DNA of 11,205 nucleotides from Nitrosomonadales bacterium (GTDB taxonomy: Bacteria; Pseudomonadota; Gammaproteobacteria; Burkholderiales; SG8-41): positions 1 through 11,205 of the forward strand of contig VFLF01000014.1 of NCBI GenBank assembly GCA_009885185.1, given 5' to 3'. Below, one piece after another: positions 7,780 through 7,818 of this stretch (its first letter is position 1; each line of letters opens with the position of its first letter). Position numbers and translations under genes: made by a program. The notes beneath the pieces are model-generated. The model ran no database searches. It worked only from the letters and a program-made list of their open reading frames with translations, and was not told the origin of the DNA.

Positions 7780-7818
7780 GGGCCCTTAGCTCAGTTGGTT
7801 AGAGCAGCGGACTCATAA
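7780..7818 (+). tRNA. tRNA with CAT anticodon (Ile2 or Met), 5' half only
   Basis: The 5' acceptor strand GGGCCCT (7780-7786), bases TA (8 and 9), the D-arm (GCTC 7789-7792, loop with TTGG, GAGC 7802-7805), the 5' anticodon stem GCGGA (7807-7811) and the loop CTCATAA (7812-7818, anticodon CAT at 7814-7816) are all in register. The sequence closely follows proteobacterial tRNA-Ile2(CAT), which is often annotated as Met. The 3' side of the anticodon stem (expected TCCGY), the T-arm and the acceptor partner AGGGCCC with CCA are absent at the normal distance, and I could not find them further downstream. The gene is therefore broken at, or interrupted just after, the anticodon loop. Bacterial group I introns are known at this spot (the Azoarcus tRNA-Ile intron), but the expected intron core motifs are not visible. 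Confidence 0.8.

What the first reader, a model, noticed from the sequence alone, without database searches (positions are those of the whole stretch)
7780..7818. tRNA-Ile2/Met(CAT) gene that stops being a tRNA right after the anticodon loop
Acceptor 5' strand, D-arm, 5' anticodon stem and the full CTCATAA loop are perfect, but the 3' anticodon stem, T-arm and 3' acceptor strand do not follow and were not found in the rest of the window. In tRNA-Ile(CAT) of some betaproteobacteria (Azoarcus) a self-splicing intron sits right after CAT, so a missing 3' half at exactly this point may mean an intron. Otherwise it marks an insertion or deletion border between the core locus and the accessory region.
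Basis: partly seen in the sequence, partly recalled or inferred. Interest (0 to 1): 0.7.

Follow-up and report, generated by a model that had tools for sequence, protein, structure and literature searches.

The report
tRNA gene split by integrated element
The half tRNA gene is most likely the left scar of a mobile DNA element that inserted into the anticodon loop of a tRNA gene, a known but uncommon layout in which the front half of the gene is left behind; it is not an intron.

Summary
Confirmed: window 7780-7818 is a 39-nt 5' half of a tRNA(CAT), probably Ile2, ending exactly at the anticodon loop CTCATAA. No 3' half follows (best match 17 mismatches of 38; five shuffles 16-18).

The intron reading fails: no Rfam intron hit, while group I introns at this site in relatives have the 3' half about 200 nt on.

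The border reading holds. G002, G360 and G364 share the left flank and keep the tRNA intact. GC falls from 59.2% to 50.8% at the junction. The first ~390 nt to the right recur beside broken anticodon loops in G001 (same tRNA, 5' half) and G002 (a tRNA-Asn 3' half). G001 also has a likely counterpart: a 62-bp repeat (upstream region plus 5' half) joined to an intact 3' half on another contig.

Best explanation: attL of an anticodon-loop integration leaving a 5' fragment, a kind known for 159 of 3919 Islander islands (PMC4383910). Whether the tRNA is regained through an element-carried 5' half, or through a complete element-borne tRNA as in G267, G188 and G249, is open: the window's genome is not held and the window holds no integrase-sized ORF right of the junction.

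The parts
7763..7768 (+). TAACAT, possible -10 element of the native tRNA promoter
   Evidence: read by eye at the place where G002 has TAAAAT and G001/G004 have TAGAAT (sequences); not tested
7780..7818 (+). 5' half of tRNA(CAT), probably Ile2 (acceptor 5' strand, D-arm, 5' anticodon stem, loop)
   Evidence: identical to the first 39 nt of intact genes in G002 and G001
7812..7818 (+). anticodon loop CTCATAA; last native bases before the junction 7818/7819
   Evidence: alignment with L002 ends at 7818; L013/L003 identity ends at the same base
7819..8207 (+). foreign end sequence ('arm'), recurring at broken anticodon loops in G001 and G002; CCGAAC at 7902, 7914, 7990 and 8001
8208..8705 (-). 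CreA family protein, accessory gene beside the arm
   Evidence: PF05981, E 5.6e-55; in 5 of 74 family genomes at E 1e-30
10646..11089 (+). ORF of unknown family whose relatives also lie beside CreA in G001 and G002
   Evidence: 87.5% and 86.9% nucleotide identity; no Pfam or PHROGs match
6491..7672 (-). NADH:flavin oxidoreductase, native left flank of the tRNA
   Evidence: PF00724; left flank shared with G002, G360 and, over 186 bp, G364, all with an intact tRNA

Best explanation
Window 7818/7819 is the left junction (attL) of DNA brought in by site-specific recombination inside the anticodon loop of a tRNA(CAT, probably Ile2) gene that is intact at the same place in relatives. The native promoter and 5' half stayed on the left; the 3' half was pushed to the far end of the inserted DNA, outside the window. 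The first ~390 nt to the right are the element's end. In the likeliest form the element carries a copy of the 5' half with its upstream region at its other end, so that a working tRNA is re-formed there under an element-borne promoter. Shown: truncation exactly at the loop, intact copies in relatives, homologous ends at other broken anticodon loops, and in G001 a right junction with a 62-bp repeat. Inferred: that a tyrosine integrase did it, that the two G001 junctions belong together, and what the right end looks like in the window's own genome.
For: Intact gene at the same place behind the same flank in G002, G360, G364. G001 contig C40: same 5' half, then DNA alignable to the window's (284 of 445 columns including the tRNA part). 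G001 contig C2: intact tRNA whose upstream 23 nt plus 39-nt 5' half equal those of C40 over 62 bp, divergent before and after. G004 and G363 have intact tRNAs with foreign left flanks sharing 46 bp at 89%, about 21 bp of it beyond the stretch G004 shares with empty sites; G004's foreign side carries an integrase N-terminus (PF13356) and a primase-like protein. The window's arm recurs in G002 against the anticodon loop of a tRNA-Asn 3' half. GC 59.2% against 50.8%. CreA patchy, 5 of 74.
Against: No second junction and no integrase-sized ORF in the window; the window's genome is not held. C40 and C2 of G001 are separate contigs, and C2's right flank matches none of the relatives compared. The C40 insertion is followed 4.1 kb on by a decayed tRNA 3' half (27 of 28 nt, truncated) and then another arm copy, which the simple picture does not predict. 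Partial arm copies lie away from any tRNA noticed (G002:C27, G001:C40:3497-3658). G363's right flank matches the empty-site relatives only from about 1 kb out. No left junction was found in G004 or G363.
Confidence: 0.55

Rival explanations
1. Same kind of integration, but with a short common core and no rebuilding of the tRNA at either junction: the element supplies a complete tRNA(CAT) of its own (tRNA-dependent integration).
For: G267: same syntenic 5' half broken at the same base, then a complete intron-bearing tRNA(CAT) and an integrase-like gene. G188 and G249: 5' fragment, complete tRNA(CAT), integrase relative. Published for phages at tRNA-Ile2-CAT (PMC10865867). In G001:C40 the local tRNA is split and not rebuilt.
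Against: No complete tRNA in the 3.4 kb right of the junction, while in G267, G188 and G249 it lies within about 160-340 nt; the junction sequences of those three are unlike the window's.
Confidence: 0.25
2. Plain deletion or non-specific rearrangement that happened to end at the anticodon loop, next to unrelated accessory DNA.
For: The arm's last part and CreA occur together away from a tRNA in G002:C27; one G001 arm copy is next to a 3' half truncated at the T-loop, i.e. not at the anticodon loop.
Against: The same arm meets the anticodon loop in G001 and, on another tRNA, in G002; repeated precise endpoints are not expected from random deletion.
Confidence: 0.15
3. Group I intron interrupts the tRNA and the 3' exon lies further on.
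For: Such introns sit at this site in 3 of the 5 genomes (of 300 searched) where the 5' half is followed by a base other than T.
Against: No intron match; no 3' half in 3.4 kb; the following 392 nt fold worse than 99 of 100 shuffles.
Confidence: 0.02
4. Split tRNA gene whose halves are joined in trans.
For: The 39-nt half and a possible promoter are unmutated.
Against: In G001 the local 3' half is decayed and a complete tRNA exists elsewhere. Recalled: split tRNA genes are known from archaea.
Confidence: 0.01

Closest known systems
Genomic islands with a displaced 5' tDNA fragment (Islander, PMC4383910; passages and Table 1 seen)
   Same: 5' fragment left behind; anticodon-loop crossover site; far copy would be intact
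   Different: second end and integrase not seen for the window
pTN3-type integration into the 5' half of a tRNA gene in Thermococcales (PMC8371274 and PMC5495485, passages)
   Same: tRNA rebuilt away from its original promoter
   Different: archaeal; there the integrase gene itself is disrupted by integration
tRNA-dependent lysogeny (PMC10865867; abstract and two sections read)
   Same: tRNA-Ile2-CAT among the targets; tRNA left broken at the junction
   Different: no element-borne tRNA within 3.4 kb of the window's junction
Group I intron in tRNA-Ile(CAU), Azoarcus type (type recalled; examples L045-L047)
   Same: interrupts the same anticodon loop
   Different: no intron match and no 3' exon in the window

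Membership tests
Genomic island in tDNA, 5'-fragment type | displaced 5' tDNA fragment ending at a recombination site | tested here: met
   39-nt fragment ending at the anticodon loop
Genomic island in tDNA, 5'-fragment type | intact tDNA of the same kind at the other end, same orientation | tested here: inconclusive
   not in the window; a likely right end exists in G001 on another contig
Genomic island in tDNA, 5'-fragment type | integrase gene between the two ends | tested here: inconclusive
   no ORF above 165 aa right of the junction; G004's element has an integrase N-terminus cut at the contig end
tRNA-dependent lysogeny / integration | element encodes a complete cognate tRNA | tested here: inconclusive
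   none in the window; rest of the element not seen
tRNA-dependent lysogeny / integration | short attP/attB common core that does not rebuild the tRNA | not testable with these tools
   attP and right end of the window's element are not available
Group I intron in tRNA-Ile(CAU) | intron core recognised by RF00028 | tested here: not met
   no match at gathering score or E 5
Group I intron in tRNA-Ile(CAU) | 3' exon (tRNA 3' half) after the intron | tested here: not met
   none in 7819-11205

The most novel reading that the evidence does not exclude
In this group of betaproteobacteria one tRNA(CAT) gene is a hotspot where elements cut the anticodon loop and take the gene over. One family's end joins the 5' half of tRNA-Ile2 in the window and G001 but the 3' half of tRNA-Asn in G002, because the anticodon arm is a palindrome and the end joins the same GCGGA half-site; the window would be the flipped, 5'-displacing form, with an essential tRNA run from an element promoter. 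Other elements at the same site bring a whole tRNA(CAT), in G267 one with a group I intron that by reading lies between U33 and C34: tRNA-dependent integration in betaproteobacteria.
Probability: 0.35. Interest if true: 0.6.

Novelty: new member of a known kind. Interest (0 to 1): 0.37.

Why it matters
It corrects a tempting intron call and gives a case of the rarer 5'-fragment polarity in bacteria, where a tRNA would pass under an element-borne promoter. Relatives suggest three fates at one tRNA locus (intact; 5' half apparently carried by the element; whole tRNA carried by the element), so the evolution of tRNA-rebuilding and tRNA-supplying integration could be compared at a single site.

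Tried and rejected
Group I intron. Structured RNA in 7819-8210: 99 of 100 shuffles fold at least as well, z +1.95. Phage and plasmid records, blastn: 13 and 16 records, matching only DNA from 8239 on (the CreA part) or the tRNA 5' half. Viral contigs with the 5' half followed by a non-T base: 8 stretches, all 8 with an intact tRNA(cat). Integrase N-terminus of G004: no relative in viral contigs; in 74 family genomes only G004 itself at E 1e-15. Arm sequence in 399 order genomes: only G001 (two candidates scored per genome, and the part of the table shown does not tell whether G002 was drawn). Integrase-like protein of G267 against solved structures: none. The order of events in G001:C40 (5' half, 4.1 kb, decayed 3' half, arm, CreA, ORF, partial arm) could not be settled. 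Paper searches for the layout gave Islander and the archaeal review but no description of this element; one search returned none; Williams 2002 is known to me only as cited.

Full report
Observation. Bases 7780-7818 are the 5' half of a tRNA(CAT) and nothing after them is tRNA. ARAGORN and Rfam find no tRNA in the window; the 39 nt are identical to the 5' half of intact tRNAs in G002 and G001; the best 3'-half match to the right has 17 mismatches of 38, and five shuffles gave 16-18. ARAGORN names the intact relatives tRNA-Met(cat); I call it Ile2 from its acceptor and T-arm, from memory.

Empty site. The genome-contig scan (query: the caspase-domain protein 4857-6449) gave 12 loci; L001-L004 are the closest (77-86% protein identity). 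L002-L004 are titled Betaproteobacteria MAGs, L001 Bordetella parapertussis. In L002 (genome G002) the same oxidoreductase gene is followed by an intact tRNA; window and L002 align up to 7818 and then part. G360 and, over 186 bp, G364 share that left flank and have an intact tRNA. Of 18 family loci printed, 17 have an intact tRNA (among them G004 and G363, discussed below); the exception is G267.

Second left junction. L003 (genome G001, contig C40) has the same truncated 5' half, followed by DNA alignable to the window's (284 of 445 columns, 64%, including the tRNA part) and then other genes. In G001 the tRNA lies about 5 kb beyond the oxidoreductase, behind genes that I read as hydantoinase-like without a family search; the empty-site relatives G362 and G365 share this immediate left flank (41 bp). 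In the same genome, contig C2 has an intact tRNA whose upstream 23 nt and 39-nt 5' half equal those of C40 over 62 bp and diverge before and after. This looks like the right junction of an element that carries the 5' half with its upstream region.

Other right ends. G004 and G363 have intact tRNAs with foreign left flanks that share 46 bp at 89%; about 25 bp of this is also shared by G004 with empty sites, leaving about 21 bp. C2 of G001 shares 46 bp at 87% with G004. G363's right flank matches G002 and G362 only from about 1 kb out; C2's right flank matches none of those compared. G004's foreign side encodes an integrase N-terminus (PF13356), cut at the contig end, and a 928-aa primase-like protein; to the right of its tRNA lies another integrase (PF00589). 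No left junction was found in G004 or G363. So pairing of ends is likely, not proved.

The foreign end. The window's arm was found in 2 of 74 family genomes (G001 three copies counting the tRNA-adjacent one, G002 two, at most nine candidates scored per genome) and in 1 of 399 order genomes. In G002:C20 it abuts what I read as the 3' half of a tRNA-Asn(GTT). Read towards the arm: window GCGGA-CTCATAA-GACA, G001 GCGGA-CTCATAA-AACA, G002 GCGGA-TTAACAG-TACA. So the arm joins the same half-site in two tRNAs of opposite orientation, as a palindromic anticodon arm would allow. The Asn fragment differs from the intact tRNA-Asn on C52 in the T-stem, so it is not a plain copy of it. Not predicted by the simple picture: a second G001 arm copy, 76% identical to the window's, follows a tRNA 3' half that matches 27 of 28 nt and is cut at the T-loop; and partial arm copies lie elsewhere (G002:C27; G001:C40:3497-3658).

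Repeats in the arm. CCGAAC occurs 4 times on one strand in the window's arm (0.26 expected) and 3-4 times in the three other arms. GCCGA[A/T]C occurs 5 times in the tRNA-adjacent G001 arm and 3 times in the G004 right end, but only once in the window's arm and not at all in the other two. These could be integrase arm sites. The motifs were chosen after looking and tested with mononucleotide shuffles only. The arm does not fold better than shuffles.

The accessory side. GC is 59.2% left and 50.8% right of the junction. CreA is in 5 of 74 family genomes at E 1e-30; arm sequence lies nearby in G001 and G002 but not in the three other loci. CreA third-codon-position identity is 0.776 to G002, where caspase, oxidoreductase and rpoD give 0.52, 0.55 and 0.65; to G001 it is 0.71, where caspase gives 0.62. 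This suggests exchange between lineages, but slower change would also do. Six ORFs right of the junction were scanned with Pfam: CreA and CsbD only; none exceeds 165 aa.

Introns as a control. An exact search in 300 order genomes for the 5' half followed by a base other than T gave 5 genomes: three with Azoarcus-like introns and the 3' half about 200 nt on (L045-L047; only L047 reaches Rfam's gathering score), G001, and G267.

A third fate. In G267 the syntenic tRNA is broken after CTCATAA; about 160 nt on comes a complete, divergent tRNA(CAT) with a group I intron (30.3 bits, E 1.1e-5, below the gathering score of 50) that by reading lies between U33 and C34, then a gene matching the PHROGs integrase family (E 2.5e-29; Pfam sees only weak SAM-like hits). 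Relatives of this integrase were found in 8 other genomes of 300; 5 of those loci hold a tRNA and were examined. G188 and G249 show the layout 5' fragment, complete tRNA(CAT), integrase; G224 and G256 have an intact tRNA-Lys before the integrase and no such fragment; G073 has an intact tRNA(CAT) preceded by five copies of its first 19 nt. The G188/G249 layout matches tRNA-dependent lysogeny, described for actinobacteriophages, two of them at tRNA-Ile2-CAT, and there suspected for Lactobacillus prophage Lj965 (PMC10865867). Two Sinorhizobium papers also use the term (search listing only).

Known context. Islander lists 3760 islands with 3' and 159 with 5' tDNA fragments (PMC4383910). A review says that a rebuilt tRNA running from another promoter is seldom met in bacteria (PMC8371274, passages).

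Verdict. Integration into the anticodon loop in one form or the other: about 0.8 (0.55 with a carried 5' half, 0.25 with a carried whole tRNA). The window is best taken as a new member of a known, uncommon kind; full membership cannot be shown because the other end lies outside the window.

Noticed in passing
L092 (G267:C33:56000-64513) 5062-8485: Native tRNA(CAT) 5' half, then about 160 nt on a complete tRNA(CAT) with a group I intron that reads as lying between U33 and C34, then an integrase-like gene; a candidate for tRNA-dependent integration with an intron-bearing tRNA.
   Followed up: partly
L096 (G188) and L099 (G249): 5' tRNA fragment (41 nt), complete tRNA(CAT) about 340 nt on, integrase relative directly after.
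   Followed up: partly
L097 (G073) 507-1378: Five tandem copies, 159 bp apart, of the first 19 nt of the tRNA(CAT) that follows them, upstream of an integrase relative.
   Followed up: no
L043 (G004:C118) 1-11467: One intact tRNA(CAT) with element DNA on both sides: integrase N-terminus and primase-like gene to the left, a second integrase and Prim-Pol gene to the right.
   Followed up: partly
L079 (G001:C40) 3473-9327: Tandem arrangement: 5' half, 4.1 kb with an HNH gene, decayed tRNA 3' half, arm, CreA, ORF, partial arm.
   Followed up: partly
L001 / G004: Record title says Bordetella parapertussis, but its caspase, oxidoreductase and rpoD DNA are 82-90% identical to the window's and it shares gene order with environmental Betaproteobacteria MAGs; the label looks doubtful.
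   Followed up: no
window 4857-6449: Caspase-domain (Peptidase_C14) protein directly downstream of rpoD, kept in the close relatives.
   Followed up: no
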